Assembly (NCBI GenBank): GCA_017654935.2
Contig: CM065682.1
Coordinates: 38,818,660-38,882,659, forward strand
Direction of reading: 5' to 3'
From: Phymorhynchus buccinoides
Lineage: Eukaryota > Mollusca > Gastropoda > Neogastropoda > Raphitomidae
DNA length: 64,000 bases
A program made the position numbers and the translations under genes. This document shows positions 12,941 through 62,600 of this stretch, piece by piece; position 1 is the stretch's first letter, and each line of letters opens with the position of its first letter. The notes beneath the pieces are model-generated. The model saw only the letters and a program-made list of their open reading frames with translations, was not told the DNA's origin and ran no database searches.

Positions 12941-13440
12941 NNNNNNNNNNNNNNNNNNNNNNNNNNNNNNNNNNNNNNNNNNNNNNNNNNNNNNNNNNNN
13001 NNNNNNNNNNNNNNNNNNNNNNNNNNNNNNNNNNNNNNNNNNNNNNNNNNNNNNNNNNNNNNNNNNNNNNNNNNNNNNNNNNNNNNNNNNNNNNNNNNNN
13101 NNNNNNNNNNNNNNNNNNNNNNNNNNNNNNNNNNNNNNNNNNNNNNNNNNNNNNNNNNNNNNNNNNNNNNNNNNNNNNNNNNNNNNNNNNNNNNNNNNNN
13201 NNNNNNNNNNNNNNNNNNNNNNNNNNNNNNNNNNNNNNNNNNNNNNNNNNNNNNNNNNNNNNNNNNNNNNNNNNNNNNNNNNNNNNNNNNNNNNNNNNNN
13301 NNNNNNNNNNNNNNNNNNNNNNNNNNNNNNNNNNNNNNNNNNNNNNNNNNNNNNNNNNNNNNNNNNNNNNNNNNNNNNNNNNNNNNNNNNNNNNNNNNNN
13401 NNNNNNNNNNNNNNNNNNNNNNNNNNNNNNNNNNNNNNNN
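12941..13440. other. Assembly gap of 500 N
   Basis: Exactly 500 unknown bases, a conventional scaffold gap whose real size is unknown. Open frames crossing it are meaningless. It could hold the rest of the non-LTR element or a missing exon of the HELZ2-like gene. Confidence 1.
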
Positions 13441-15242: not shown

Positions 15243-15489
15243 CGACAGAGCATGGTCTTGGGAATCCACTGCAGCGTGCAAGGCACCTGGGAGGCAACAG
15301 TTGAGTCCAGCAGCACGGTGGGCATCTCCACAGTGGAAGACTGCAGGCGCACTGACACCCCCACCATGCCCTTGTCCCGCTGCACCCCCTGCACGGTGCA
15401 GTGCCCCACCCAGGTCACCACCGGCGACCCCATCCTCAACAGCGCTGTCAGGCGATCGTCCAGCCCCTGCGGCTCTGGCATCTCCAAAC
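15243..15489 (-). CDS. HELZ2-like: HELZ2-like exon 22 (last recognised)
   Basis: 247 bp, phase 1 to 2. The acceptor is ccctctgccgcag and the donor is TGTCG followed by gttagt. It encodes DDRLTALLRMGSPVVTWVG and VGVSVRLQSSTVEMP, a beta-rich piece. Phase fits exon 21. Read through the donor, the frame enters a tandem repeat, so this is not the natural end of the protein. The following exon should start by supplying one base, and I could not find it in 1-15242; it may be in the N gap or beyond the window. Confidence 0.85.
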
Positions 15490-18400
15490 CTGCGGCAGAG
15501 GGATACATTGCATTGTGCCCCCGTCTCTATGTGTCCCCAATTTATGTGTCCCTTTCTCTATGTGTTCCTGTCTCTATGTGTCCCCGTATCGATGTGTCCT
15601 GTCTCTTTGTTTATCCTAACCCTATCCCTAACCCAAACACCGTAAACCTTGAACCTATCCCTATCCTTAACCAGAGGGGACACATAGAGACGAAGACATA
15701 CAGAGACAGGGTCACACAGGGACAGGTACACATAGAGATGGGGACACAATGATGGAGACACACAGAGACAAGAGCATATCGCACTAATCCAGTAGCGTGG
15801 TTAGAGCAACGTATTCACCTTGTGAAACAAGAAACCCAGATTCATTCCTGGCCCATTTGACAGTTTTTCTGCTCACTCTCCACTAGGCCTTATAGTCTGA
15901 GCGCTTGTCTTTCAGATGAGACCACAAAAACGAGGTCATGTGTGCTCACACACTTAGCGCAAGTTAAAGAATCCCATGGCAACAAAGGAGCTATCATTTG
16001 CTGATTTGGTCAAAATCTACACCCCTCCTACCCCTTGTCACTAGCACACACCATAAACACACAAAAACATTATTTAAAAAATAAAAAGGGGGAGGTGCTG
16101 CACTAACATCGATGCGCTCTCCAGGAGGGAGCAGCCCAAATTTCACAGAGACGAGTCTCTTTAACAAGAAAAGTACCATAGCCTACCTTTGTATCGAAGG
16201 CACAGCAGGTCATGAGACACCGGGAACGAGCCCTTCTCGTCCACACCAAACACTCCCAGATCATCAGGGGACTGACGGTCTCCGGAAAAGAAGATCTGAC
16301 GCTCCTCGCAGAACGACTGGCTCAGAGAGAACTCCCCGACTACGCTGACCTCTTGGTCTCCTGCCGGTGTCTGCTGCTGCTGCTGCTTCCAGTCGACGAA
16401 GACTGTGTGGATGACGGCTGAGGTGTGGCTGTGGACGGCCCGGTCAGCAGCCTCCAGGGCCAGGATGGGCATCCAGGACTGCTGGTAGCCGGCCTCGTCC
16501 ACGTGGCTGGCGGGGGAGGCAGGCGGAGAGGTCAGGGCGGCGAAGCAGCGGGCAGGGCTGTGGAAGTGCTCCAGACACACATCCAGTGTGGGGGTCAGGC
16601 TGACCAGCTGGAGGCGGGGACATAGCAGGCCTCGGAGGAGCTCTGCGGTGACCTGCACCTGCAGCACCATGCACGTGTGCAGGGACAGGGAGAACTCGCA
16701 GAAATGCTGGATGGCGCCGCCCTGTCGACGCTGCACTTCGGAGCTGACGTCTGCGGCGTACTGCTCTTCTGATGCGGAATGAGTGATGTGCTCCTGTGAA
16801 ACACAGAAAGAGAAGGTTAATAAGTATTATGTCATATTATTTAAAGGCTTTCTGTGATGTACTCCTGTAAAAGTACAGACGGTTAATAGGTGTTATGCCA
16901 AATCATAGTGCTTAAAGGCTTACTGTGATGCACTCTTGCAAAAAACTAGAATTAGATATTATGGCGAATCGGTGCCATAAATAACTTTGGTAACAAAAAA
17001 AGAAAAAGAAAAAAGGGAGTTAATTATGAGAAGTTCCTTCCCCTTATTCATTAGACATTTAGTGGTTATTGTACCAAATGATATTGCTTATAAATGCCAT
17101 AGCAATGCAGTGACCAAGTCAGACCATGTAGATAAAACTTAATAATTTAAAAAACAAAACAAAAAACCCACATAAACATACTGTAACAACTATGACTTGA
17201 ATCCTTTACCTATAAAATAAACTATGAAAAATTTTACTCTATCAAAGGAACTTAAAAAAAAAAGCTTATCAAGTTGAACATTCCCAAACAAGTTGGAATC
17301 TGACTTATATTATTTGCATTTGTGATGATGGTAAAGTACAGTAAACATGATTGTACATGTGCTCTTGGTCATACACTCTTTATTAACAGTTTGTTTCTCA
17401 CACAGACTACACGCAGACTGACCTGGGTGCTGGGCACGGCCTGCTGTAGTTTCCCTTCATCCTCCTCCCTGACGGCAGCCAGCAGTTTCTGCCAGTGGAA
17501 AGGGGGAACGCGGCTGACAAAGGCGTCGGCACACAGCTCCACTGGCCCTTGTCGGCTCACGGCTGAAGTGTCGCTGACTGTAGGGGATGCGTCATAGATC
17601 CTCTCCTGCCAGATCAGCTTCACCTGCGAAGCATGCGATATACAAAAGGTAAGTATATCATTAACTATGTTTAAGATTGATTAAAATTATAGCCCCATCG
17701 ACAACTAAGGCCATGTCAGGGCTGTCACCACGTTAAATCTTACCATGTATTATCAACTATGTTAATGCTTTAATTAACATTAAACAATGTATACACACAT
17801 ACACAGACAGACAGACACACACACATTTTCCAACACATTTACCCACAAACACCTGGAGCCAAAGAACTTTTCCTGAGAAAATAGTTTTGACAATGAAGCT
17901 CCTTAAAAGGAAAATCTTTCTGTCCGAAAGGAATAAGAACAAACAGCTGCATGCACAGAGGCACACACACACACACACACACTTATTTACAGGGTTTCTG
18001 CGCGGAACTTCCATGTATATGTGCATGAGCGCTTATAGTCTGTGGAACATGGTAAACTGCAACATCCCAAGCTTTCCCCCCACCTCCCCACAACCATCCC
18101 CTTACCTGATCCCCATCCGACAAAACCTGCGGCAGCATTGAAGGCTGCAGGGCGACCACGCTGACGCCGCGCTCCTCTTCAGGAATGCTGGGGAAACTGG
18201 CAACATGCAGCTGCACCTTCCTGCCGTCCAGTTTCTCCACCACGGGAAACAGGGTCAGGGGCCTGTACTGCAGACAGGCCGCCACATGCACAGAGACGTT
18301 GGCCGCGCCGTAGTTGTCCGCCCGCTGCTGGCTGCGGCTGCAGAGGGCGGCCAGTCGAGCGATGTCGGCGTGGGTGTAGGGAGGGTGGGGCTGGTCGGTG

Positions 18401-21400
18401 ATGACGGACGTCATCAAGCGCTGCACTACGATGCTCATGTAGCTGCGCAGGGGGCTGGTCGCGTCGATGAAGCGGGGCACATTCAACCTGTAGTGGCCTG
18501 GGTCACAGAAAAATCCATAAGGACACCAATAGAGAAGTTAATCAATCAGGAGATTGAAATTGTAATGAAACACGGTGTGAGATACAGTGAAGAACTAATA
18601 CCTCAAAATGGGATAACTCAAAAACACTGGATAACTCACAATAATTTTTGGGTCCCAGTATAATAATCTCTATGTTGAAAAGTCTTTATAACTCAAAATA
18701 TTGGCTATCTCAAACAAAAATTTCAGACTCTTCAATTTTGACTTATGCGATTTTTACTGTAGCTATAAAAATGTATAATCAGATGCTGCACCACATTGCC
18801 TTAGCAGTACTATACAGTAAAAAAAAAAGGTACAGGTAGTTAGTTAGGCATTTACAGTCCTGGACAGTTATGGTCATTTCAGGACTGTGACCATGTAAAG
18901 TTCAACCACATATTACAAAACACACATCAATGTATCTTACCAATGTTCAACAACCTGAAAACATGGCACAAAATACAGAACAACCTTTACTTGTCGGATC
19001 CAGTTTAAAAAATCCAGGCAACTTAAGACTACCGTATTTTACGGACTATAAAGTGCACCTGATTATAAGGCGCACCCCCCAAATTGGATTCAAAATTCAG
19101 ATTTTCTCTATTTCTTTACTATAGCATCAGTCACATCATAAGGCACAGGGATCTCAGTCTAGGAAAAAACGGATGGCCGTATAGTCTGTAAAATAAAGTA
19201 TTTGGGATGGCTCATGTTTATGACTCTCAATCCAAAGTCTGGCACCCCCAAACACCCCCTCATGTTTATGACTCTCAATCTCAAAGATTAGCTCTTTCAG
19301 TTTCACGACAATAACCCTAGGCTGATCCTAACACTATTTCTTTCCCAAGCACAACAGTGTTACTTCTCAGTGAACATTTTTAATGTGAAAATTTTATTGT
19401 GTGTGTGTGTTTGGAGTCTAAACCACAAGTTAGCCTAATTAATTCACAGCCCCCACATAAAAAAAACTGGCTGCTGGTGCAGTGTCTCCTCTGGTGGTTG
19501 CCTCATAACAGCCTAACATAGATTCGCTCCACTTCAACTAATAATCTTGGGTTCTGCGACCTAACAAGCCAAGGTGAAGCTGCGAGTTGGGACTCGGAGT
19601 AAGCGGCGTGGGAGCAATGCCACTGCACCGCCCAGAAGATGGGACAGCAAAATAAAAATAAATAAAAATCCCTGGCCGCTGGATACCATTATCCCTGAAT
19701 TAACCCTTTCACCGCCGATGTCGCATTTTTGCACCATAATAATTTAACACCCATGTCATTAAATGCCTTGAAATCAGGGTTTGTTATCCAATTATCTACT
19801 TTTCTTAATTTTGTGAGGAAAGGATAGGCCCTATTTGAAACATGTCAGAGAAGAATCCCCAATGTTGGAGAAACTTTTTTTTTCTTTATCCATGTAAGTT
19901 TAATGGGAAATTTTGGTTATAAAATGGCTGGCGGCAAAAGGGTTAATGACAAGCAGGGCTTCCAATCGTCCAGCATAACAAGGGGTCCCAGGGACTCCTT
20001 CACTTACAGCATAGAGGGTCCTAGAGGCGGGATAGAGGGTCCCAGTGGCATTGCAATTATGCTAAAAAGAACTTTTCTAGTGCATCCCTGGGACCCTCTG
20101 CACATTCTTTTAGAGGGTCCTTTAGAATTTTAGTGCTTCATAGACCCCCAAATGGGGGTCCCTGGGAGCCCTGGACAAGATTAACAGAAGCATTCTGAAC
20201 TTTGACTCTTCACTGACCTTGGTGCAAAGGGTCCACATCACCGGAGCACACGAAGCACTGCTGGGGAATGACGTCCTGCAGCTCCTTCAGAGCCACGCAG
20301 GTCTGCGGGTGGTTGTTGGGGGCGGCCACCACCTGCTGAATGGTGCCGCTGTAGCCGAAGGGGGCCGCCGCCAGCGCCTGGTTCCACAGCTCCGTGACCA
20401 CGTCAAAGTGATCCAGGGCCTTCACCTTCTGATCACGCATGTAGCTGAACACGCACATGCACATCATGCGGCACGTGCACACCTGCAAAAAGAAGGTGGG
20501 TTTTGTGGTTGCTTTTCTGTGAACCAGGACAGATTTTTAAACTTTTACATTTTGAACACGTTTTCAAACTGTGATGCAAAAAAGTAGCATTGTGTAAATA
20601 CTTCGCTCGCTACTATGAGTTAGCATTTGTGACATTAAGGATGAACGCAATTTCACTTTTTCTGTATTTGAAACACTTTTCCGTACTCAAATCGTTAATA
20701 TTTCATGACATTACGGAAAAAAATGAAATTTAAAAAAATTCGCTCAATGTCGAAAATGCTAAGTCTCATAGTAGCGAGCGAAGTATTTACACGTTGCTAC
20801 TTTTTTGCATACGACAAGGCGTTCTGAAATGTTGAGGTGATAGCATAGTATGTTTATGCACACCACGCTGCAGGTACACACCTGGAAAAAGAATGTTGTT
20901 TTTTCTCGTTTTTTCTGTGAACCTCACATGTAGCCGAATATGCACAATGACACCATGCAGCACACCTGCTAAAAGAAGATTCTTTTGTTTAACCCTTTCG
21001 CCGCCACCCATTTTTCAGCCCAAAAATACCATTAAACTTAACTGGGTAGAGAAAATAAAATATCTGCAATATTGCGAATTCCTCTGTGACATATATAACA
21101 TTAGGCGTATTCTTACCTTTCAAAATTAAGAAAATAGGGTCTATTGGACAACAGTCCCTGATTTGATGCCTTTTAATGACATGGGTGTTAAACCATTGTG
21201 GTGCTTAAATGCGACATTGGCGGTGAAAGGGTTAATCTTCTGTGAACCTTGTATGTAGTTGAACAAGCACATGCACACCAAGCTGAATGCAACACCTGCA
21301 AAAAGAAGGGGGGGGGGGGTTGGCTTCTTATTCTGTGAACCTCACATGTAGTTGAACACACTCATGCACACCATGCGGCATGTGCACACCTTTAAAAAAA

Positions 21401-24400
21401 AAGGTGTTTTTTTTCTGTCAACCTCACGCGTAGTTGAACACTCATGCACACCAGTCTCCATGGTGTATGTTGTACACACCTACAAAATGAAGAAGTTTTG
21501 TTGTTTGTGAGCATGCACCTGGAAATATGTTCAAACTATGAAATTTTGAACATGCTTTTAACTCTGTCAAGGCTGCAGAACCGAAATCCGCCCGATTTTT
21601 TTTTCCTTCCCTGGTGGCCGATGACGCCGATTGCGCCCGCTGAACGCCAGGTCTAGTACGTTCACTTTCACTTTCTCCCTACCCACAATGCAATATACTA
21701 AGTTAGTTCTTCCTGTTTCTGACACTCCCGGGTCAGTTTTTGGTCATTACAGCAAGGGAAAGCACCCAATAGTCTTTTTGAATGGATTTTTCAAAGTGAC
21801 GCCAATTTTTTTAATTTTTTTCACGTGACGCGGGCAGTAATGACCCGGTGGGATGTTTGGAGTGCCATTACGGATTTTTTCTTCTAATTCATGGTTTATT
21901 GTGTGACATTGTGTTAGCTTTCGAATGAAAATATCATCATTGCTATTCAATATGCATCTTTCAGAAATGAAATGTGAGTTAGACTTTATTCTGGGTGATT
22001 TTGTTTAAATAAAAGATTTGGTGTGAGGTTCGGAGTTAATCCTCTTCTCTTATGCAATAGGATTGATTCTCGGTTCGATTGATTGGGAGGCATAGGGTTA
22101 AACTGAAGTGTGTTGAAAAAGTTTGGACAGTGGTATAATGCTGCATAGTGACTTTGGGGTTGTAAATGTACATTTTTATTTTAATAGGATTATGTATCAT
22201 TGTATGACTGAAGATTCAGAACATGAGATAAATCATAAATTATTATATGTTTGTGCAGAGAACAAGGGTAATGGATGACAGAACATGATAAATGATTATA
22301 CATTTGTGTTTTGTGCTAAGTACAAGGGTAATAAATGGATGACAGAACATGAGATAAATTTGTGCGCTGTGCTACGTAGTGCAAGGGTACATGATGACAA
22401 AACATGAGCAAAACGCATTAATGTACAAACATATTTTGTGTTAAGTACCTTAGTTATACAGTGGAACCTCCTTATAAGACCTCCCATTATAAGACTCCCT
22501 CCCACATAAGACCTACTTCTCTGAGATATTGCCCTTCTTTGTAAGTATTCAAATTATCTCCCTTATAAGACCTCATTTTGGATTATTTTTGAAGGTCGTA
22601 TAAGGGAGGTTCCATTGTAATAATAAAAAACAAACTGCACAAAACAAAAGACTCCTCAATCCATGTACCTTGTTGCCTTCCAAGAAGGGCTTGGTCAGAG
22701 CCACAGAGTTGATGGCATGGGCCGCGTGCCTGGCCCTCCACTGCTCCAGCCTGGACCTGTTGGGGGCCGGCTCCTGCAGGAGGGGGGTGCACTGGGGCAG
22801 CACCCTGACCAGCAGGTCCGCCACCTGGCAGTTGGCCATCAGCACCAGCTCCTGCACCAGGAGGTGGGCCTGGGGAGACACCATCTCCAGAGGACCCAGC
22901 TCGGGGTCCAGGCGAGCGTTACCCTTGCGCTGCTTGCGCTGCATGAGGGCGATCTGGTGGAGCACCAGGATGCAGCTCTTGAAGTATTCATTCTCGGCAT
23001 CCTGCATGTTGTCCAGGATGGCCTCCACCTCCTGGTAGGAGAACTGCTGCATGGGGTGGATAACGGTGCGGTCCATGGAGGTCTCCACCACGTGCCACTC
23101 CTCCCCGCTGCCCGTCACTGTCATGAACACGGAGAGTGTGCAGCAGTCGCGCCCAGGTGTCAGGCAGCATAGCTGGGAACTCAGCTCTTCAGGCACCAGC
23201 GAAACAGGCTCTCTTCCCATTGGAGAGATAGCAGTGCCCCGATGTAGGGCTTCTCTGTCCAGGGCCGAGTCCATGCTGACAAAGCACGCCACGTCGGTGA
23301 CATGAACAGACACCCTGTAGGATATGTCTGACAGCTGATCGATGCTGAAGGCAACCTGAATGTCTGCGGTGTGGGGAGAGTCGATCGTGAAGCACCAAGA
23401 GGATTCAACGATGTTTGTGCGCGAGGTGTACACCTCGGGAGGCAGGCTGTAGTTCCCCTGGTACTCAGACTGCATCTGTTCCATCACACTGTGGCTGAAC
23501 TGGGCAGAGGGCAGGTGGTGCTCGAGGTCCAGGATGTTCAAAGCCGAGGTCAGGTCATAACCGGCAGGTATCACTGCCACCACAACACCGATGGGGTTGA
23601 AAAACCCTGGCAGCCACTTGAGATACCTGACCACAAACAGCTTCCCCTGTGTGGCGTTGGCCTCCACCTTCTCATAGTGGCTGAAAGTGACGGTGCTGTT
23701 GTCCGTCAGCTGGTACACACACACAAAACCCTTCCTGACCCGCTGAGCATGCTTCTGCAGCAGTACATTGTACACGGCTGGAATGCCCACACTGACGGGC
23801 TTCATCAGGCCCTTGTTTACCTCACTGGCAGAACACACGAAGGAGCGACGGCCAACATCGATGGCCCTCTGCCAGATTCCTACCACTCTACCACGCACTG
23901 TGACGTTCTCCACCTCTTCCGGCTCCTTCAAGATCTCCACCAGAACTGTGTCCCTATTAAAGGCTCTGCCCCTGTGCAGTGCCCCCTCCACCACCACCTC
24001 CTGAACAGGGTCCAGGGGGTCGAGGACACGAGCCAGGCAGCGGTCCTCCTCAACATGGATGGTGCACACCTTGTATCGTTCTGGACAGCTGAGCACTGCG
24101 TCCCGCTGGGTGCCTTCGGTGAAGTGGAAGAACTGGATCACATCCCCTTTGTCTCTGTCAACATCCTCATAGATGAGTTCATCCTCCACAAACTCCTTGC
24201 CAGACGCTGAGACCTGCATCATCTTCCTTCGCCTCTCCTCGTCCTCCAAGCCTGCGTCGTAGGACACCACAGCCAGGCCTTGGTGCTCCTCCACCTTCAC
24301 GCACTCTATCCTTGAAGCTCCCGCGCTCTCCCCTCCATCATCAGCAGCCAGCTGCAGCAGGATCTCATCGGCTGTCAAGGAGAGCTCTGTGGCCCTGTCT

Positions 24401-27400
24401 TTGTTTACAACGGCCTTGGTGAACTTGACAGGTTTCACCAATTTGACAGGAGAAGGTGGGCTTGGCTTCGTGCTCTCAGGAAGATTCACAGCTTCAGAGG
24501 CATCGCCTACAGGATGTTCTGGCTTCACAGTTCCCTCATTCTGGCTTTTTTTCTTCACAGCGTTGTGGTCTCTTGAAGGACCTGGGTCTAGGGATGCACT
24601 GGAAGTTTGCTCGGTGGGATTGCAGAGCTCAGCCACCTCCTTCAGCCTAATGTTCATGGACAGCTGAAGCTGTATCACCTGCAAACACAATTTACAATAA
24701 AATGGTGGTAAGAATGGGAGATGTAACAATTCATTGATCTTAACAATATTAACTAATTTTTGACAAAAAGGTTCCAGGAACTTGCATATCCAGAAAAAGA
24801 AAGTGGATGAGGACTTGTTGCTATACTCAGTCAAACCCATTGATCATAGTTAGACCACAGGATCAGCTTCAATAATATACCACTGTACACAATTTGAAGT
24901 GATTCTGTGCAGTGGTTATGAAACATTGTGTGGACAGACAAAAAAACAAAAACAAGAATAGATGCAAATAAAAACACGATCCTCTTCCCTCTCTAGGGCA
25001 CATGAAAATGACCTAACACTACACTAAACTGGCCAAACACAAAATCAAAGTGATCAATCACAAAATCATACCAAAGCTGGCTTCCACACATTTCTTAACA
25101 AAAAAAAGAAGTTAAAGGCTTAAAAACAAGTCACAAGTCACACAACTGCTCCTTAGGATCAGTCGAGTGACTGCTCTCGCCTAAAAGGGAAAAAGCAGCA
25201 CTCGCGGTGTGCCGACAAGTGGCCTAAAACTGCAATCGTTTTGTTTATATATGTTACGCCCAATTCGTGAAATTGCCTATTTCATGAAATGGGCAAAATA
25301 CTTTGCCCAAATCATGAAATGGACAATGTATGTCAAATTTGTCAATTCCCATTCACACAGGTATTAATTAGGGATGATTCAACAATGGCATATTTTTCTA
25401 CATTGTATTTGCACCCCCATGTTACCCCACGACTCTAGCCAATGATACCTTGGGGCATGCCTGAGCACGTTGTATCAAATTAAATCTGAATAAAAGAATG
25501 TTAAAATTATCTACAGGTGTCATTTCTCATACATTTGAACCAATTCTTTGCGTGTTAATAAACAAAAGCTATTTGTTTTCAATTCATATTGCTTTTCTAA
25601 ATACCAATTTTAAATTGGCTATATCACGAACTGGGCAACTCATTTTGCCTATTTTATTAAATGGGCTATTTCACGGATTGGGCGTAACATGTATGCCTGG
25701 TGTGGCATTAAAGAGAAAAATCTAGCACTTTGTTAGCAGTTTTCCAGCATTTTCTAAGCAAAAGTAAAACATCTTTCCAGTTTTCTGTAACCTTTTAAAA
25801 AAACACCAAAAGATTTCCAGGCTTTGTGTGAACCCCGCGGAAGGAGGCACTGACCTGGTCCCTGACGCTGTCGTAAGTGATGGTGGGCGGGTGGATGCTG
25901 CGCATGTTGTGGCAGTGCTTGATGTAGGTCTGCCAGATCTTGGTGCACTCCCCGATGGCGCACAGGGCCACAGGGTCCCCCACCACCGCCACCAGGCACT
26001 TGGTGCGCGTCATGGCCGTGTTCAGCAGCTTGCTGTCCGACAGGAAGGCAAAGTCCGCCACTCCTCCGGCCGCGTCGGCCTCATGGAGAGCCCGGGCCAC
26101 CTGGTCACTGTTCAGCAGGTTCCTGGTTCGCACCGTGGAGATGAACAGGGCGCGGTACTCCTTGCCTGGGACAACGAAAACAGCACAGGAATTTTCAACA
26201 TTCTGGCTGCTTGGTTTTGCCCAGAGAACTGTTTATAGATAGGACCAAGCTGTTGTCCAAAGTTCTTTCCTGTAACACTGGCAAGTTCTTTTCCCATTGG
26301 TTGCGGTTAACCCTTTCATCGCCACTGTCGGCTCTTGGCACCACAATGATTTAACACCCATCTCACTAAAAGGCATCAAATGAGGGTCTGCTGACCGATT
26401 ACCTTATGTTCTTAATTTTGGGAGGTAAGGACAGGCCCTATTTTTATGCATGTCATAGAGGAATCCCCAATATTGCAGACAAAATCTTTTCTCTACCCGG
26501 GTAAGTTTAATGGTAAATTTTGGCTGAGGAATGGCTAGCGTTGAAAGGGATAAAGGGAAAGACCTAACAAGTGCTATGCAACATTAAAAAAATATAGAAC
26601 ATAATAACTTTGGAGGGGAGGGAAGGGGGCAGGCTTATTTGAGATGGAGTAACTATAGTTTATGGTGCAACTATACTTTGAAGTGAATTTGTTAACTACA
26701 GTATGTTTACATATTACAGACATGTAGACAAAAATTAAAAAAAGGATGATATTAAACAACACATTAAACATTATTACCTTGCATGGCCTGCACCGTCTCC
26801 ACATTAACCCTGCGTAAGTCAGGACGCCGTTTCTGTCTCAGTAGGAAACGGATCTGCTTCACCTGTCGCACCACAAAATACCACCTGATACGAGCTTCAC
26901 ATAACATGCCACTCATGTTAGCTTTTATCATGTTCTTTTCTCTTTTTTGGCTGTTTATCAAATTAAATCATGTTGCTTAGGGCCCTGACGACAAATCAAA
27001 GCAAGTTGTCAAAACTATAAAAAAAAAAGCTTTAACAACTCTTAAACCATCCTGAACAACTTTTCTTTTTAAGAAAACAATGTTAAAAACGTCTTCAAAC
27101 TCTGGCTTGTAGACTGATAAAAGAACGCTCCATATAGAGACAGAGAACGCTCCATCCCTAAATGACACACAACTACTACATCAGTATGCTGCTCACCTAG
27201 CTAAGTGCAAGAGAAAGATACTCAGGAGCAGACCCAGGAACTTCCCTGGACCAGTTAGAATTTTCTCAAAATGACCGACCTGGTCAAAATAGGGAGTGAC
27301 CACGCTGATCTCATTGGGAGCTATGTCCCCCCACTCCTGAGGCCAGTTGTCCAGCAGCTCGATGACCCTCTCCACCACTTCGCTGCTCTCGGACATGTTG

Positions 27401-35579: not shown

Positions 35580-35623
<44 letters not shown>

Positions 35624-50600: not shown

Positions 50601-53600
50601 AGATTTGCGCATGTGTCCGAATTTCCCCTATATGCGTAAACTTTTATCATTCTTTAGTGATTTCCGTACAGAACTTATGCGTCTAATGTGAACCAGGCCT
50701 TAAAGTATTGCTTACATTTCTTTTTGAAAACAATCTAAATTTCCAACTATCTTTTAGATTTCTGAAGGAAAACAATCTAAATTTCCAACTATCTTTTAGA
50801 TTTCTGAAGGAAAACAATCTAAATTTCCAACTATCTTTTAGATTTCTGAAGGAAAACAATCTAAATTTCCAACTATCTTTTAGATTTCTGAAGGGAAAAC
50901 AATCTAAATTTCCAACTATCTTTTAGATTTCTGAAGGAAAACAATCTAAATTTCCAACTATCTTTTAGATTTCTGAAGGAAAACAATCTAAGCTTTAAAC
51001 TATTGTTTTGGTTGTTCATCTTAAACTATTGTTTACATACATTTCCTTTCAAATAAGAAACACTCTAAACTTCCAAGAATATTTGTAAAGTTTTAAGGAA
51101 ACAATCAAAGCTTTCAACTATTTCCTCACATTTCTTATGAAAGAAAAAACAAAGCACTACAATAATTTATAAATTCAAGTTTTTATAGATACCAAGTGTG
51201 TAATTACAACCAAAATTAAAGCATATTTGATCCATTAACGCGTCTTCTTTTCATAAGTGATAAAACAAACTCAATAAACAGCAAACTTTGTTTTCTTTTC
51301 ACAAGCAAAAAACAAACCCACTTGACAGGAAAACATTACCACAAATTTAGCAAGCACTCCTTCTTCTTCTTCTTCGATCGCTCAGACAGTTTCTTGTCAA
51401 TTATGAGTGCAGATGCGTCATGCTGCCGTTATGCGCCTAAGTAAGAAATAATTAAGCCCAGCAAGTCCGACTTCGGCTGGAGGAAATCTTTTTGAAAGTG
51501 TTTCTTGAAAAAAAGGCAGGAGAATGGACCGGAAAGGCAGAAAAATAGTAGATGACAGCAAGCAAAGGGAAAAGGCAGAGTCAAAGAGAGTGGTGGATTT
51601 TGATTAATCCTACTATCTATTTAATTTAATACTTACCAACACTCAAAACAACTGCATTAGCCTAAAACAACCTGGAACCTTACCCTAGCACATAGCTAAA
51701 ACGAAAGTGGCCCCAAGGGACTGCACCCATACCGCAGGGAGTAGCGGGAGTGACTCCCCTTACTTCCGGGTATGACGCGCACCCTTGGGGCACCGGATAT
51801 GTCATTCGTGTAATTTTACAGCCCCGCATCAGGAGGGAGGCTGGGAGGGAACATTTTTTGTTTTGAGTGTTGGTAAGTATTAAATTAAATAGATAGTAGG
51901 ATTAATCAAAATCCACCAATCTAATTTAATCATACTATACCAACACTCAAAACAACTGCAGATTACCACCGTGGTGGAGGGTGATGCGTGCCAACTGACA
52001 CACCAACAACCCCAAAAGCATACCAGTAAAAGAGGGGAAACACTCCTAAGAGAATCCCCCGAAAGATGTACAACATCCCTGAAAATATGCAAATAAATAC
52101 CCCCAAACAGTCATGTCAATGATATACCAAAGAACACAGAGAAAAAACAGAGGCACAAAAAACACCGGAACTCACACTACAAGGAGACCGGGACCTGCGA
52201 AACGACCACCTTCTAGATGGAAAAGGAGTCGTCTTCGCCCTGAGCAGAGATATCCCTCAGGTAAAACTGAAGAAAGGTGTTCTGCGACTACCAGAACGCT
52301 GAGGCCATAACCTTCACAAGAGGGACACCCTTGACTACCGCCAGGGAAGAGCTGATGGCCCGCAACTCGTGGGCGCGAATGGGGTTATCAGGTAACCTAA
52401 CCAGCGAGCGGGCATAGGCCAACTTAATGAGGTCGAGGAACCAACGGGACACAGTACCCTTAGCCACATCGCTGCAGTACTTGGGATTAAAGGAGACGAA
52501 CAGGCGACGTTTAGCCCTTCTGAAGGACTTGGTACGAGCCAGAAGAACAAAGAGCCCTAACGGGGCAGAGGAAGAAATCACGATCATCAGGACCCAGAAC
52601 GGAGCGAAGACTCGAAAAAGAGGCCAAGGGAGAGGAAACATAACCAGACTGGTTCTTGCACGGAACTCCGGGAGAAAAGAAAGGGAGACAGACGAGAAGT
52701 CCTCCTCGAACTGACATCCTTGGTGAGACCTCTCAGAGCATGCAAACCACTGAGGCGACGGGAGTGGCGAAAGAAATGAGAAAAAACTGTCTTGAGAGTC
52801 AGAAGCTTAAGAGACAACGACTCCAGGGGTTCAAATTTGACCCAGAGAAAAACCAGAACCAAAAAGATGTCCCACTGAGGACACTGGACCGTTCTGGACG
52901 GGGCTTGGAGGCGCACAGCGTCCAGGAAGTGAGAAACTGGCAAAGCCGAGAGATTCCCCGTAAACTTGGAACCTAAAGACAACGAGATCGTGCTAATCAA
53001 GACCGCCCTATAACCTGACAAGGTTTGAGAGGAAGAGTTCCTAGTTCTAAGCAAGTGAGAGAGGAACTCCACGAACTGAACCGTTGAGGGACGAAGCGGG
53101 TCAAACTTTCTCTCCTGACAAAACGCAAACCAGGTGGCCCGGCGAAGATCATACAGATCGTTTGTAGACTTACGCCGAGAGGCGGCCAACAGATCCACGG
53201 TGCGCGTGGAAAACCCCTGAGAGCGAAGGCCTAGTCGGACAGCCGCAATGCGACCAGGTTTAGCCTTGAAGGGCAAGGGTGTCCGACCCCGCTTCTTGAC
53301 TGAAGAAGAGTGGCGGGAGTGAGATTGAGCGGAAGAGGACCGTCTTGCGCCATGTCGAGGAGCTCTGGGAACCAATGGCTCCTGGGCCACATTGGTGTGA
53401 CGAGAATCAAGTCCGGGTGCTCCCGAAGGACTTCTTCAACACCCGGGGGATTAGTGCCATCAGAGGGGAGGAATACAACGGCATGCACTTCAGGAAGAAG
53501 TGCGAGAAGTGGTGGCGTACAGCTTAGCGGTACGGTAGCACCTAAGGCCATGGAACTCATACTGAAGAAGACAAACTCCGCATCGAGTCACCTAGAGCAG

Positions 53601-56600
53601 CCAAGGCCTGATACATTACGGACTATGAGTGGCCGGACCGGGCCACTACACACTGCTACGCCCTTTCGAACTGGAAAATATCGATCGAAGGGGCGAGTCT
53701 GGGTCAGAAAACAAACTGGACAAGACTAGTTCAGAATGTCGGGCAAGCAAAGGACCGATGGCGGGATAGAGACAGCTAGTACTAGGATGAAAATCCGCAA
53801 GAGCAGCAGATTCAGCCTCTGACCTAGCAAACTGAGAAACCACGGTACGAATGTGCGACTGCACTTCGTAACCAACTCTACATGCTAAGACCGACGAAAG
53901 GGACCCCCGTTGACTGGGTGAAAAACCAGCGGAGACAATTCGATCGGTAGGGAGGTAAAATAAAAATAAAAAACTGCCTATGAAGTAGGAACAGACAGCA
54001 ACAGCAACATAGTTGCTATCGCATGACGTCAAATCGAACCAGATGACGCGGAAAAGTCCCCACCGAAAAGGAAAACATGTAGACAAAAAGCGAAACAGTG
54101 TGCAAACGTGACGATGACACACCTCGACCTAAACCATAAAAAACGGTCGGAACGAGACGCCGAAGACCAAAAAAAGGGGGGGGGGGCCTGAAGGAAGGCA
54201 AAAATCACCCCGTCGAACAACTTTAGGTTGAAAGCTGTGCCGTTCGGTGATCTGACGGCTGAGAAGGGAAGATCATGCTAGCCGGACAGTTAAAGCCAGA
54301 TCGGGACGGAACCAGTCCGAAACAGGATGACTGGAACGGCCGAACGAGTCAACAGGTTGAACAACTCATGGTTGAAACCGTGAAAGAAGGAGTGCGCACT
54401 CTGACTTCTCTCTGCAAGGGCCTATGTATACCCAGGCCAGAGGAAGGAGCTCCGAAGAAGAACAAAAAACCCTTTAAACGGCCTAAGAGATCGCCGGCCA
54501 ATTAGAGTCAGAATGTCTTTGTTGTGGCTCGGCCTCCTGTTGCCACGAGAAGACTGGGAAGGGGGGCCTCAAGGCCTTGAACTGGGGAGGAGGCCTAGAG
54601 GAGTATCCCACACTCCTAGAGCGGGACGCGAAGTACCCCGGACGAAATGGTTGGGACGGGGCTGGTTCAACAGGGCCCGATAGATAGCCTTCTGGCTATC
54701 AGCTGACTTCCTCTTTGAAGAGGACTCGAGAACTGGGGGAACCGATTCTTCCCCTAACAAGCCCGACTCCGGAAGGGGAAGAGAGCGCAAAACGCTCCTT
54801 TTCCCTGGACGAAAGAGACCTGTTCTGCGCCAGAAAGAATCCCGGGCCAAGGCACAGGTTTGAACCTTCAAACCAGCCGTGACATCAGAGAGGCTCTGTA
54901 GCGCATTGCCCAAAAGGGCTAGAGAGACTCCAACGGAAGCTTCATCCACCTGATCAAAGAACTGAAAAACCGCCGGTGAATCAGAGGCTGAATTGCCTAG
55001 AGACTCCGCCAAGGTTTGCACGAGAGAGGTGGCCATGCCACAAGCCCTGAGAGAACCAGACAGAGATTCCTCGAGAGACTTGAACGTGACGGGAGGAACA
55101 GCAGCAGGACCCCAAGGACTCCACCTCCTCAGAAGGTTTGGAGACGGAGGGGAAGGGCAGGTATTCCGTTGGTAGGGGGACGAAAGGTCTGAATCCAGGT
55201 ACCAAAAAGGAACCGAACTGAGACGAGGCCGGCTGAGAACGCCCCAGATTAGCCTCAGCAATCTGTTTCAACGAAAGGACCTTGCCGGTCCTCAACGTGA
55301 ACTCCGCTTTAACCACCAAATCCTCCGGGAAGGAGGGGGCTTGGAGAGTCAAGGAGCTCTTGGCCTGCAGAAGAGAGCCAACCGCGTGATCAGTGGCGGA
55401 CTCCTGATGGGAGGAACGCACAGGTACCACGTAAGGGCACGATCGAGACAAAATCTTGAGAAGATTCTGAACCGAGGACTCAGTGAGAGAGTGAGGGACC
55501 TCCGACTGAGGGTCCAGTTCCATGTCTGACTCAAAGTCGGACTGAAACTCAGAGAATTCCCTGGAGGGGTCTGGCCGTTGAAGCTTCTGATAAGGGCGGC
55601 CCAAGAGTCAAACACCACCGGAGGCCATGCCTGGCAGAGGGCTCTGCCGGTAGGGAGTGAGAGGATCACTGAACACCGGCCGGAACCGGGAGAACGTGGC
55701 GTCCTCCGTGCGAGCGGGACATTCCCGGTTGACCCAAACCGGAGGAACGAACCGGAAATTCATCATCGGAATTTTCCGGTTCTAGGCGAACCCTTTCCCG
55801 GTATGTCCGCGTTGGCCAAGCAACCGGGAGACAACCGGATGATTACCGGGTAAACACCGGGAGAACCGGAGGAAACGGTCTCGCAACCGGGAAAGGCAAA
55901 TAACCGGTTGCGGTGGGAAAGCCAAGAGGCTCCAACCGTGCCATCCCCCGGTATGTCCGCGTTGGCCAAGCAACCGGGAGACAACCGGGAGAAACCGGAT
56001 GAATACCGGGTGAAACCGGGTAAGCACCGGGAGAACCGGAGGAAACCGTCTCACAACCGTGAGAAGCGAATTTCCGGTTGCGGTGGGACTGCCAAGAGGC
56101 CCCAACCGCGCCAGTGCCAGGATCACTGGAGAGCCATCCCCCGGGAGGGGGGTATGGACTCTTATCGGTATTGAAGGTGCCCCGCACCGACCGATTTGAC
56201 TGTCCTGGTAACCTCTCCCTCGAACTGAGTGGAGGATTTGAGCCCGGACTCAGGAAAGGGAACAGGCCGTTCCCGATCCTGGAGGTACCTCCCAGGTACC
56301 ACCGTTTGTCCGCGTTGGCCAAGCAACCGGGAGACAACCGGGAGAAACCGGATGAAACCGGGTAAGCACCGGGAGAACCGGAGGAAACCGTCTCACAACC
56401 GTGAGAAGCGAATTTCCGGTTGCGGTGGGACTGCCAAGAGGCCCCAACCGCGCCAGTGCCAGGATCACTGGAGAGCCATCCCCCGGGAGGGGGGTATGGA
56501 CTCTTATCGGTATTGAAGGTGCCCCGCACCGACCGATTTGACTGTCCTGGTAACCTCTCCCTCGAACTGAGTGGAGGATTTGAGCCCGGACTCAGGAAAG

Positions 56601-59600
56601 GGAACAGGCCGTTCCCGATCCTGGAGGTACCTCCCAGGTACCACCGGATGATTGCCTGACAGACTGGCCAGTCTGGTGACAGAGGAGTCACCTCTGTCAC
56701 TAGGCAAGCTCCCCGGAGGGGAGCCTCTCTGTTCCGTAAACATCAAGCCCACAGGACGGAAACCAGAGGTGGAAAGGGATTGCCTATCCCTGTTGAGGTC
56801 GACGCTGGTCTTAGCGGACAAGGGCCTCCTGGAGGCAAGCCTGTGAACAGAAGAAGGAGAGAGGGCTGCGCCAGTGACAGTCTCACGTTAGAAGAGACAA
56901 CTGGCGGCACCCTCTCTGGCCTAATCATAAACCGAAATAGGAGGAAGATTCTGTCGATGCGAAAGGGAGAACCCTGAAACCCGAAGAGTCCAAGTGACGT
57001 AGTACAAAGCCTGCGAGTCCAACGGAAAAGGAGGAGCAGAAACCTCCGAAGGGAGAGAAACTGGAATGGGCTCCGAAACCGGTTAGGCCGGTGTAACCGA
57101 AACGGACTGTGACTGGACGTTAGACGTAGGATTTGTGAGAGGATTTAGACGAAAACTTCTTGTAGAAGATTAAGAGAACCTGCCCAAAGGGTCCCTAGTG
57201 AGAGAAGAAGAGTCAACTGACTTGGAAACAGAAAAACAACCGAAGCAGAAACTGCTTTGCCCGAGTGTTTTGAAACCGAGGGGTGCAAGAAGCCATAATG
57301 GCTGACGCCACCCCGAAAACGAACAACAGAGTGAACGAAATAATTTTTCAACTAAAACGAACACCAAGAAATGACAATGAAATAATATCGATAGGATGAC
57401 TAACAGCCTTCCCAAGAAACTGAATAGAACAAAGCTATGCACGGAACGAACCCACCAGATAGACAAGAGTCAGAAAAGGCGGAGCAGGGTAGGCCCAGGT
57501 GTGGTAGAAAGGCTGGAAAATTTAAGAATGACATATCCGGTGCCCCAAGGGTGCGCGTCATACCCGGAAGTAAGGGGAGTCACTCCCGCTACTCCCTGCG
57601 GTATGGGTGCAGTCCCTTGGGGCCACTTTCGTTTTAGCTATGTGCTAGGGTAAGGTTCCAGGTTGTTTTAGGCTAATGCAGTTGTTTTGAGTGTTGGTAT
57701 AGTATGATTAAATTAGATTGACAGATTAGAGAAAGTTTGTTCAAGCACAGAACTTTCAGAAGGTGGGGTCCCCCTGTGGGAAAAACGGGGGGGGGGGGGG
57801 GGGGGGGCTGGGGGGGCTTTCATACAAATAGTTCCCCCACCTTCTGGAAGTTCTGTGCTTGTAGCTTCCTCTCATCTGTCACTCTCTTTGACTCTGCCTT
57901 TTCCCTTAGCTTACTGTCATCTACTATCTTTCTATCTCACTGGTCCATTCTCCTGCCTTTTTTTCTAGAAATTCTTACCAAGATTTCTTCAGCCAAAGTC
58001 GGACATGCTGGGCCTAACTATTTCTTAGTAAGGCGCATAACGGCAGCATGATGCAACTACGCTCATGTGACAGGAAACTGTCTCAGCGAACAAAGAAGAA
58101 GTGAAAATAGGATTTTACGCCCTCTGCGGTCTTTCGACCATGTGGGGCATTCTTAAATACAAAGATGGTGGGAACAATACTGGAGGCAATGCCCAGAGGC
58201 AGTGCAACACCAGTAAAGTCCCGATTGTTTAACAATACAGATATGTGTAGCAGTAACCACGCCTCGGTTAGACCTCATCGGCTATGGTACTGCCACAAGT
58301 AATATACAGAACTTTCAGAAGGTGGGGGGAACTATTTATACAAAAGATCCCCCGGTCTCCCCACTGGGTGCAAGCACTCCTCACTTGTTACAAATGGCCA
58401 GGTTGTTGCCAAGCCCCCAGGGAGGCTGTCGGAAATTCCACTGGTGGTCCTTGTCCGAGTTGACGTTGAAGGTGTGTTTGTCTGAGGCGCAGTGCTGCTC
58501 CCACTGCCTCTCACTGTTGCACTGAATGGAGCAGTAGCGGCAGTAGTGGGAGCTGTTTTGCATGCCAAAGGGTAGCCGTACAGCAGCAGAGTTTCGCCGG
58601 GCTGTAGGTGCCGCTGTGGCCATCACCACAGAGTCCCCTTGGCTGATTTTAGCTTTATTGACGTCCTCTTTGCACGCTGTCACCACGTCCTCCAATTTGC
58701 GCACTGTCCAATACAGAATTACATCGATTTTTTGTTCCCAAGTTACAGTCAAACTCTGCCAAACAGTGACCCAAAAGTGAAGGAATTATTAGCCTCAACA
58801 ACAAAAAGAGCACACACACACACACACGCACACACATGGGTGCAACTACACAAAATGAAAAACCCCTGAAAGGCCGGGGTCCATGGGTAATGTCCCCCTG
58901 CAGCTGAAGCAAAAATTGATTTATGAACATATTTTAGTTTGCTTTTTCCACAATTTATACAAAGAGCTTATTTTAAAAAGTTTGAAAAATACAGTAGACA
59001 CACAAAGAGCTTGTTCGACAAACTGAAAAAAAGGAACTTCCTATTCTGGTAAAATTCAAAAACAGGAAATCCTTGCATACCAGGAAAAGTTGCACCCATG
59101 TAAACACACACTAACAAACACACACTAACAAACACACACTGCGCAAACCAAGTTTGCGAGCCATCCATATCCAGGGCAGCCTCTCCACACAAACACACAC
59201 AGCTACACCCAGACAGTCCCACACACAGCTACACCCAGACAGTCCCAACAACCACAGACCACGGTGGCGAGCCATCCATATCCACAGCACCACACACAGA
59301 AACGCACACACAAGCACACACAGCTACACCCAGACAGACCCAACGACCACAGACCACGGTGGTGAGCCATCCATATCCACAGCACCACACACAGAAACAC
59401 ACACACAAGCACACACAGCTACACCCAGACAGTCCCAACGACCACAGACCATGGTGGCGAGCCATCCATATCCACAGCACCACACACACAAGCACACACA
59501 GCTACACCCAGACAGTCCCAACGACCACAGACCACGGTGGCGAGCCATCCATATCCACAGCACCACACACACAAGCATACACAGCTACACCCAGACAGTC

Positions 59601-62600
59601 CCAACAGCCACAGACCATGGTGGCGAGCCATCCATATCCACAGCACCACACACACAAGCATACACAGCTACACCCAGACAGTCCCAACAACCACAGACCA
59701 CGGTGGCGAGCCATCCATATCCACAGCACCACACACACAAGCATGCACAGCTACAAACACAGTCCCAACAACCACAGACCACGGTGGTGAGCCATCCATA
59801 TCCACAGCACCACACACACAAGCATACACAGCTACACCCAGACAGTCCCAACGACCACAGACCACGGTGGCGAGCCATCCATATCCACAGCACCACACAC
59901 ACAAGCATACACAGCTACACCCAGACAGTCCCAACGACCACAGACCATGGTGGCGAGCCATCCATATCCACAGCACCCTCTCCTCGTTGTTGTGGGCAAA
60001 CTGGCAGGGGCCTGGCCCTGTGAACTGACACTTCCTCTTGTTCTGGATGTAGTTGCACAGCACAAAGTTCAGGTTGCGTGGAATCATGTTGGGCAATGAG
60101 CGCAGTTCCTTCATGATGCTCGTGATGACAAACACCTGTAAGGCCATTAAACGATCTTCTATTATCAGTGCAGTGGTATCGATAGTGCTTAGACATTTAT
60201 AGGAATTTGAACCGTTTTTCGCAGACCTGACAACCATAAAATTCTACTTTGTATGATTGGTTTTCAGGCTTTGAAAACCTTCCACTCAGTGGTGGTAGAG
60301 CCCCACCATTGACTTAATAAAAGCAAAACCATATTAGGAAGTGGTGAAAGGCTGTATTTTGTACTTTTCATCATAAGGAAATCGTGATGAACAAAATCCC
60401 CAATGCCTAAGTAGTAGCTGAACTATTTCGGAGTCTATTACAACTTTCCTTTATCAACCACAATCATGGACTAAAAGTAAAATTGGCTGTGTATGCCACA
60501 AACCAAGTTAAATGTTATGAAAACAGTTCACTGTAAAATAAAAAAATAAATAAAAAGCCACAAGTCAAGCTAAATGTTATCATAAGGAAATCGTCAGTAT
60601 TGTAGAAGTCATCTTTTCTCCACATACACAAATTACACAATAATTTAACTCTGAAACTATGAAAAATTGTCTCAGTAACATGATTAAAAACACACAATGC
60701 ATCATAAAGACATACATCTCCACCCCTCTAACCTTCACTACCAAAACCCTTCACTTTATACGATTCCCTAACTATACACTATACAGACATGTTTACCTCA
60801 TAAACGCACCCTGTATTTTTTACAAACAGATAGTCTATCAAACATAGACTTGTAGTGCTAGGCTTTTCAAACATTAAGAACTCTGGCATAACGATTAATT
60901 ACCGAATACAACAACAATAAGTGGTGGCAGAAGAAAAAAATAATGTGTAGGCGTATCAACAAGTAGAGCAAAGACTGGTTCAAGAATTCAGAAGTCAGTT
61001 TACTTAGATTTCCTTCTTTTAAATACAGACAGAATGCTGGAGGGCTTCCCCAGCTTCTGGTGTTTTGCAGCTTTCATATAGTTTTTTTATTTTTTTAAAC
61101 CTGGAATAATAGCATATTGTTAGGTTTACTTTAACAAAATAATAGAGGAAACAGATCACAACAGTTCTTCCACACACTAAGACACACTTGACTACCCCCC
61201 CCCCCCCCCCCCCGACATACATACACACACACACACCAAAGCCCTTGTGCTGACTGATCCTTTTGGTGACAAAGTTGGAGTGTCCCTTGACACACTTGAC
61301 TACTCCCCCCCCCTGACATACACACACAGCCCTTGTGCTGACTGATCCTTTTGGTGACAAAGTTGGAGTGTCCCTTGACACACTTGACTACTCCCCCCCC
61401 CTGACGCACATACACACACCAAAGTCATTGTGCTGACTGACCCTTTTGGTGACAAAGTTGGAGTGTCCCTTGACACACTTGACTACTCCCCCCCCCCCCC
61501 CTGACACACACACACACAGTCCTTGTGCTGACTGATCCTTTTGGTGACAAAGTTGGAGTGTCCCTTAACACACTTGACTACCCCCCCCCCCCCCCTGACA
61601 TACACACACACACCAAAGCCCTTGTGCTGACTGACCCTTTTGGTGACAAAGTTGGAGTGTCCCTTGACACACTTGATTACTCCCCCCCCCTGACATACAC
61701 ACACACACACACACACCAAAGCCCTTGTGCTGACTGACCCTTTTGGTGACAAAGTTGGAGTGTCCCTTGACACACTTGATTACACCCCCCCTCCCCTGAC
61801 ATACACACACACACACACACCAAGCCCTTGTGCTGACTGACCCTTTTGGTGACAAAGTTGGAGTGTCCCTTGACACACTTGACTACTCCCCCCCCCTGAC
61901 ATACACACACACACACACACACCAAAGCCCTTGTGCTGACTGACCCTTTTGGTGACAAAGTTGGAGTGTCCCTTGACACACTTGTTGGAGGTGCCGTCCT
62001 GCAGACTCCTGGTGCCGGTAGCCCAGCACAGGCCGCAGAACTCGTGCACGGTGTGAGGCACCTTCTCTCTGCCTGAAATCCCACTCCCTGCATGCCCACC
62101 AGCGGGAGTTTTCGGCATTGACGAGCTTGTTGAAGGGGTGGGTTTGGGCGGTGGTGGGGCACCCCAAGCTCCCCTGGCCCTCTGCCGCATCACATGCAAT
62201 AAATTGTAAAGTGCTTTGAGGTTTGTCTGAGACCAGAGAAAGAAGCCATGCAAAATGAGATGTCTATTATATCGGTCAGTTAAGTCTTTTATAGTCCTGT
62301 CAACAAGCTGTCGCCATCTCAGGACCGTCACCATGTAAAGTTCACACCGCGTAAAACAAAGCACACATCCATGTTTCCTAACAACGTTCATATAACTATG
62401 TCGCACAACCTCAAAACATGACAGATACACAGATGTCCATAACATAATGGGGCTTTATACTACTCCTTGCTGACACGAAAGGGCGATAATTTTAGGCCCG
62501 AACTGCTGATGCCCCCTGGTGACGAGTCAGGAGCAGATACTTTTCTGTGGCTATATACTACTAGTCCCTGACAGGCAAGGGTGATAATCTCAAGTAGGTG

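What the first reader, a model, noticed from the sequence alone, without database searches (positions are those of the whole stretch)
15243..62226. Splice sites and exon edges repeatedly copied into tandem arrays within one gene
Four different exon edges of the HELZ2-like gene (exons 2, 7, 18, 21) are each repeated, with the adjoining splice site, as a tandem array in the next intron; two are donors and two are acceptors. A fifth array starts exactly at the exon 3 donor. Intronic minisatellites are common, but arrays whose unit spans the exon-intron border at several places of one gene are not something I know as a described pattern. It suggests a local mechanism that duplicates DNA at splice junctions (slippage or R-loop-linked repair), or tolerance for extra splice sites. 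The pattern is seen directly; the mechanism is inference.
Basis: partly seen in the sequence, partly recalled or inferred. Interest (0 to 1): 0.78.

Follow-up and report, generated by a model that had tools for sequence, protein, structure and literature searches.

The report
Copied splice sites in snail gene
In one snail gene, five exon ends and their splice sites have each been copied into the neighbouring intron; lancelets show the same oddity, so this looks like a rich new example of a known, little-studied pattern rather than a new one.

Summary
The gene (minus strand) is HELZ2-like, most likely from a caenogastropod snail: 70% identical to a Babylonia protein over the searched part. A 22-exon model joins in phase. 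Of 42 exon edges tested against their adjoining introns, five stand far above control with repeats that cross the border: donors of exons 2, 3 and 7, acceptors of exons 18 and 21.

Of 32 copied borders examined, 27 keep GT or AG and none would give an in-frame, stop-free longer exon. Exon 2 and 3 copies are nearly identical; exon 18 copies are diverged and interrupted by two palindrome-ended stretches.

The pattern is already described, as "mirages", in amphioxus. Enrichment at borders is modest: 4 of 12 blind-detected repeat groups against 1.2 expected, P about 0.03. The genome-wide test could not be run. Most likely: ordinary minisatellite birth across a border, tolerated because splicing uses the exon-proximal site.

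The parts
15243..63705 (-). HELZ2-like gene, internal part, 22 exons in the window
   Evidence: All exons join in phase without stops; RNB, OB_HELZ2 and AAA_11 Pfam domains; 70% identity to a Babylonia areolata HELZ2-like protein over the searched part
61945..62226 (-). exon 2 (its acceptor is uncertain: first residues not shared by relatives)
   Evidence: donor supported by relatives: TKR|VFVI
61181..61984 (-). exon 2 donor array: true edge plus 7 copies, spacing 88-103 bp, 40 nt of exon in each; 4 of 7 keep GT, 3 of 7 have AT
59946..60135 (-). exon 3 (donor ATG|GTCTGT, revised from relatives)
   Evidence: VLWIWM stretch shared with relatives; exon 4 then starts at 58703
59104..59983 (-). exon 3 donor array: true edge plus 9 copies, unit 83 bp (spacing 81-111), 23-38 nt of exon in each; 9 of 9 keep GT
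46790..47062 (-). exon 7
   Evidence: both edges match relatives
45527..46847 (-). exon 7 donor array: true edge plus 9 copies with a border (and fragments), 41-60 nt of exon; units mostly 99-141 bp; identity falls away from the exon; 8 of 9 keep GT
20218..20482 (-). exon 18
   Evidence: start VCTCRM or similar in the relatives shown
20420..21561 (-). exon 18 acceptor array: true edge plus 5 diverged copies, unit about 84-94 bp; 5 of 5 keep AG
   Evidence: tblastn of two relatives hits one intronic copy at 21392-21321
20989..21235 (-). palindrome-ended stretch, probably an insert, inside the exon 18 array
   Evidence: inverted repeat I3, 18-nt arms
20574..20810 (-). second palindrome-ended stretch, probably an insert, inside the exon 18 array
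   Evidence: inverted repeat I1, 46-nt arms
16187..16793 (-). exon 21
   Evidence: edge STQ|EHI lines up with relatives
16783..16956 (-). exon 21 acceptor array: true edge plus 2 diverged copies, spacing 71 bp, 11 nt of exon; 1 of 2 keeps AG
   Evidence: below threshold

Best explanation
These are 'mirages': intronic minisatellites whose founding tandem duplication happened to span an exon-intron border. Duplicating a segment [exon end + intron start] head to tail leaves one complete border next to the exon and puts the second into the intron, so the coding sequence stays intact (follows from the geometry). Later slippage and unequal exchange expand and homogenise the units (inferred from copy identity). 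Splicing goes on because the site next to the exon, which defines the shortest exon, is used and the intronic copies are ignored (inferred; no RNA data). Several events of different age in one gene reflect minisatellite-rich introns, perhaps with extra slippage where the intron start is G- or GT-rich (weakly supported).
For: Border-spanning copies at 5 of 42 edges. Edges supported by relatives. No relative shows a second strong copy of an edge motif; weaker second hits occur, mostly for the exon 3 CCCH motif and a few for the others, positions not checked (31 of 120 listed proteins scanned). 0 of 32 copies would give an in-frame, stop-free longer exon. Non-border repeats are also common: 8 of 12 gene repeat groups span no border, and 5 more lie in the left flank. 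Different ages: exon 2 copies 39-40 of 40 exon bases identical; exon 7 copies decay with distance (rho -0.85); exon 18 copies 67-86% identical in the exon part and broken by two palindrome-ended stretches. Same anatomy published for amphioxus.
Against: Border arrays exceed random placement somewhat (4 of 12, expected 1.2, P 0.03), so something may favour borders. Exon 18 copied acceptors, and less so exon 7 copied donors, look better kept than their divergence predicts (P 0.002 and 0.012, simple model), which neutral debris would not show. No transcript data, so use of the exon-proximal site is unproven.
Confidence: 0.75

Rival explanations
1. A mechanism directed at splice junctions (for example R-loop or G-quadruplex linked slippage where the G-rich coding strand is displaced just after the donor) duplicates borders preferentially.
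For: 4 of 12 blind repeat groups and 4 of 7 multi-copy arrays span a border against 1.2 and 0.7 expected; with exon 21 added, 5 of 11 tandem groups against 1.2 (P 0.003) and 5 of 8 multi-copy arrays against 0.8 (P 0.0007), but exon 21 was found only by looking at edges. The exon 2, 3 and 7 donors are in the top 4 of 21 introns for G over C skew in the first 60 bases and the top 3 over 150 bases.
Against: Acceptor arrays show no G excess, and the G-richest array (intron 22) spans no border; exon 19 has the strongest 60-base skew and no border array. The skew may partly result from array growth. Small numbers, and a window picked because it looked striking. The single-rate estimate gives P 0.02-0.10 for 4 of 12.
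Confidence: 0.13
2. The copied sites are used or kept for a purpose: decoys or step-wise (recursive) splice points. Exon 18 begins with GTGTG, so every copied acceptor reads AG|GTGTG or AG|GTGTT and could be spliced to and then out again.
For: 5 of 5 exon 18 copies keep AG and good acceptor scores (P 0.002) and exon 7 copies keep donors (P 0.012).
Against: Exon 2 shows the reverse: the donor is lost in 3 of 7 copies whose exon part is nearly unchanged (probably one mutation spread by homogenisation); exon 3 is neutral (P 0.44) and exon 21 worse than expected (0.91). Alignment favours copies with a kept border. 0 of 32 copies give a usable exon extension.
Confidence: 0.07
3. Assembly or annotation artefact: arrays mis-assembled, or the exon edges misplaced so that the repeats are purely intronic.
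For: Long near-identical arrays (exons 2 and 3) are hard to assemble; a 500-N gap lies elsewhere in the window. The exon model rests on frames, splice sites and relatives' proteins, not on transcripts.
Against: Edges of exons 7, 18 and 21 and the donors of 2 and 3 line up with relatives. Diverged copies, with probable inserts, are hard to explain as assembly errors.
Confidence: 0.05

Closest known systems
Amphioxus 'mirages' (Adh3, globins BflGb6 and BflGb9, troponin C, PGBD5)
   Same: Minisatellite-like tandem copies spanning an exon-intron border, at 5' or 3' borders, many copies keeping AG or GT, coding exon intact; units of 10-72 bp (Adh3) and 150-160 bp (globins) there, roughly 70-140 bp here (passages of PMC3087553 and PMC3902484 read)
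   Different: Mollusc, not cephalochordate; five edges in one gene, of clearly different ages; splicing and length polymorphism not tested here
Variable internal tandem repeats at exon-intron boundaries in human segmental duplications
   Same: Minisatellite repeats that can lie at an exon-intron boundary (passages of PMC2812944 read)
   Different: There tied to recent primate paralogues and putative new introns; here one gene whose protein is not visibly changed
[quoted passage not shown] potato RdRp, PMC4974935)
   Same: Tandem duplication carrying splice signals, in the potato case with part of an existing intron-exon structure (passages read)
   Different: No new intron is apparent here; copies sit inside introns and the encoded protein stays aligned with relatives
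Ordinary intronic minisatellites
   Same: Unit length, head-to-tail copies, growth and decay; eight other repeat groups in the same gene span no border
   Different: The unit includes 11-60 bases of coding exon and the splice site

Membership tests
Mirage (border-spanning minisatellite) | Repeat unit spans an exon-intron border | tested here: met
   5 edges with copies crossing the border; edges supported by relatives
Mirage (border-spanning minisatellite) | Several head-to-tail units in the adjoining intron, true exon intact | tested here: met
   7, 9, 9, 5 and 2 copies; exon model open and in phase. Exon 21, with two weak copies, is the least certain
Mirage (border-spanning minisatellite) | Many but not all copies keep AG or GT | tested here: met
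   27 of 32
Mirage (border-spanning minisatellite) | Regular mRNA splicing is undisturbed | not testable with these tools
   no transcripts; only that use of 0 of 32 copies would give an intact longer exon
Mirage (border-spanning minisatellite) | Length instability between haplotypes or cells | not testable with these tools
   one assembly only
Intron gain by tandem duplication | The duplication creates a new intron | tested here: inconclusive
   copies lie inside introns; intron positions of relatives were not examined
Dispersed intron-borne mobile element (introner) | Same unit found in several unrelated introns | tested here: not met
   the five border queries score 27-90 in their own intron; for each, the best of 40 draws from other introns is lower (15-23). 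Only this gene was searched

The most novel reading that the evidence does not exclude
In this snail lineage, as in amphioxus, tandem duplication is actively directed to transcribed splice junctions (for example by R-loops at G-rich donors), so border arrays arise recurrently across the genome and keep supplying spare splice sites for new introns and exon ends.
Probability: 0.13. Interest if true: 0.8.

Novelty: new member of a known kind. Interest (0 to 1): 0.45.

Why it matters
The named pattern, mirages, comes from lancelets, and my ten paper searches listed no mollusc case. A gene with five border arrays, recent and old, suggests the pattern is not a lancelet peculiarity, gives a time series from fresh to nearly erased, and offers natural test cases for how splicing chooses among identical sites (does the exon-proximal one win?) and for intron gain by duplication. 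If border arrays prove enriched genome-wide, it would point to a duplication mechanism tied to transcription or splicing.

Tried and rejected
Rejected as border copies: exon 7 acceptor, exon 12 donor, exon 22 acceptor. Considered and dropped: a uniform age gradient (clear only in exon 7; exon 3 rho -0.22, exon 18 rho -0.40, neither significant); coding constraint on copies (differences by codon position: exon 18 copies 18, 8, 11 with 16 indel columns; six of nine exon 7 copies 21, 11, 27); Rfam families (no match at gathering threshold). I did not look for relatives' genomic DNA: by their descriptions the collections on hand hold prokaryotes, viruses and plasmids, and metagenome scans were capped at 0.

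Prior-art search: ten paper searches listed no mollusc mirage. Most listings were complete; two searches showed 20 of 1,028 and 10 of 354 papers. Passages read: PMC3087553, PMC3902484, PMC4974935, PMC2812944, and two that proved not to be cases in the passages seen (earthworm metallothionein PMC12783039 with first-intron minisatellites; Conus introns PMC3862624). The original Adh3 paper is not held. The library lacks most subscription journals.

Dropped before counts: of 21 rows, 5 in the left flank and 4 judged by eye to lie in the two copies of a mobile element; of the 12 left, two are spaced pairs rather than tandem arrays and one (15210-14882) lies just past exon 22. Unit lengths and element bounds were entered by hand. 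Weaker hits (scores 22-41, fragments without a border, and the queries' own sequence) are not among the 32 copies, except the second exon 21 copy (score 26), which is. The copy motifs were written, and for exon 18 they require AG, so 5 of 5 there rests as well. The 'multi-copy' class was defined after seeing the data.
Full report
What the gene is. The minus strand carries a HELZ2-like gene: RNB and OB_HELZ2 domains in the longest exon, an AAA_11 helicase domain upstream. The best protein relatives are Babylonia areolata (70%), Nucella lapillus (68%), Littorina saxatilis (62%) and other gastropods, so the unnamed source is most likely a caenogastropod snail, probably a neogastropod (inference). 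I built a 22-exon model from reading frames and splice sites; all exons join in phase with no stop (revised model open at 2463 residues). Aligned with relatives (12 aligned, 10 shown; 10 aligned), 19 of 21 junctions line up. Two do not: exon 1|2, in a low-complexity linker, where the exon 2 acceptor stays uncertain; and exon 3|4, where 10 of 10 relatives shown continue with a stretch like VLWIWM (exact in 6 of 10), the very words that begin the repeat unit in the window. The revised exon 3 ends ATG|GTCTGT at 59946 and exon 4 starts at 58703; tblastn with relatives agrees to within a few bases for exon 3. No transcript was available.

Is the observation there? Yes. At each of 42 edges I compared 100 bases centred on the border with the adjoining intron (up to 4000 bases), against 40 length-matched draws from the other introns. 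Eight edges were flagged. Five have copies clearly crossing the border: donors of exons 2, 3 and 7 (z 23, 27, 19) and acceptors of exons 18 and 21 (both z 12). The remaining three flagged edges show no convincing border copy.

Anatomy. Exon 2 donor: 7 copies, spacing 88-103 bp, each with the last 40 exon bases (39 or 40 of 40 identical); 4 of 7 keep the donor, 3 of 7 have the first G changed to A. The array ends in a partial repeat of ten bases (CAAGTGTGTC), as expected if the founding duplication used a short shared word (inference). Exon 3 donor: 9 copies, unit 83 bp, 23-38 exon bases aligned; the outermost is the most diverged. Exon 7 donor: 9 copies with a border plus fragments, reaching to within about 145 bp of exon 8; exon-part identity falls from 52 of 53 next to the exon to 76-81% far away (rho -0.85, P 0.004). 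Exon 18 acceptor: 5 diverged copies (exon part 67-86% identical) interrupted by two palindrome-ended stretches, probably inserted elements; tblastn with the Babylonia and Littorina proteins recognises one copy inside the intron (21392-21321, E 5e-4 and 4e-4). Exon 21 acceptor: 2 diverged copies with 11 exon bases; weak, but the edge scores 27 against a control maximum of 15. In total 32 copied borders, 27 with GT or AG kept, and 0 of 32 giving a longer exon that is both in frame and free of stops. Copy divergence differs between arrays, so they most likely arose separately.

Is it more than chance? A self-comparison blind to exons found 21 repeat groups in the window. Leaving out 5 in the flank and 4 in mobile-element copies, 12 lie in the gene, and 4 span a border (exon 21 is below this threshold). 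Random placement of units on a map with elements and arrays collapsed expects 1.2 of 12 (P 0.03); for the 10 tandem groups 1.1 (P 0.02); for 7 multi-copy arrays 0.7 (P 0.002), the last class being defined after the fact; adding exon 21 lowers P to 0.003 (5 of 11) or 0.0007 (5 of 8), but exon 21 was found only by looking at edges. A simpler single-rate estimate gives P 0.02-0.10 for 4 of 12 and 0.002-0.013 for 4 of 7. Since the window was picked because it looked striking, I read this as suggestive of about 3-fold enrichment, not as proof. The decisive genome-wide count could not be made: the genome search did not answer in ten tries.

How it most likely works. A tandem duplication of a stretch that crosses a border leaves a complete border beside the exon and moves the second into the intron, whichever side it is on; the protein is unharmed provided splicing uses the exon-proximal site. 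Exon definition, in which the splice sites bounding the short exon are paired, would do that when introns are long, as here (about 2 kb on average; the principle is recalled, not tested). Slippage and unequal exchange then expand and homogenise units. For the three donors the intron start is unusually G-rich (top 4 of 21 by skew in the first 60 bases; top 3 over 150 bases), which would favour slippage or R-loops. Against that, the acceptor arrays lack it, the exon 19 donor has it without an array, and the G-richest array, in intron 22, starts some 33 bases past its donor and spans no border.

Do the copies do anything? I asked whether copied sites are better kept than the divergence of their own exon part predicts. 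Exon 18 acceptors are (P 0.002), exon 7 donors are (P 0.012), exon 3 is neutral (0.44), exon 21 is worse (0.91), exon 2 is clearly worse (three of seven donors lost while the exon part is nearly unchanged, possibly one mutation spread by homogenisation). The signs conflict and alignment favours kept borders, so no general selection is shown. Exon 18 copies all read AG|GT, the form of a recursive splice point, a bold but untested possibility.

Comparison with what is known. The pattern has a name. [quoted passage not shown] a later paper adds PGBD5 and cites troponin C (passage of PMC3902484). In human segmental duplications, variable repeats at the exon-intron boundary are linked to putative new introns (passages of PMC2812944). 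The anatomy here meets the sequence criteria of a mirage; splicing and length instability could not be tested. My ten paper searches listed no mollusc case; two of them showed only the top of a long list, and the library lacks most subscription journals.

Verdict. A true and well-preserved case of a known, little-studied pattern, apparently new for molluscs and unusually rich for one gene; not a new kind of system on present evidence.

Noticed in passing
38060-44450 and 51590-58300: Two near-identical copies of a mobile element in introns 8 and 4 (bounds by eye), with long shared ORFs and internal 332-342 bp tandem repeats; the ORFs look like a tyrosine-recombinase retroelement (by eye, not tested).
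   Followed up: no
10901-12055: A 384-residue open frame that looks like a Tc1/mariner transposase (by eye, not tested).
   Followed up: no
20574-20810 and 20989-21235: Two palindrome-ended stretches inside the exon 18 array; elements with ends like the second seem to recur near 19740-19990 and 26310-26560 (by eye).
   Followed up: partly
4914-5987: A 67-bp minisatellite of 16 copies, 96% matching, outside the 22 exons: minisatellites are common in this stretch of genome.
   Followed up: no
15489-15770: Minisatellite of 16/31 bp ending 25 bases before the exon 22 acceptor, without exon sequence; an array resembling its reverse complement lies at 15677-15770.
   Followed up: partly
12941-13440: Run of exactly 500 N, presumably an assembly gap.
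   Followed up: no
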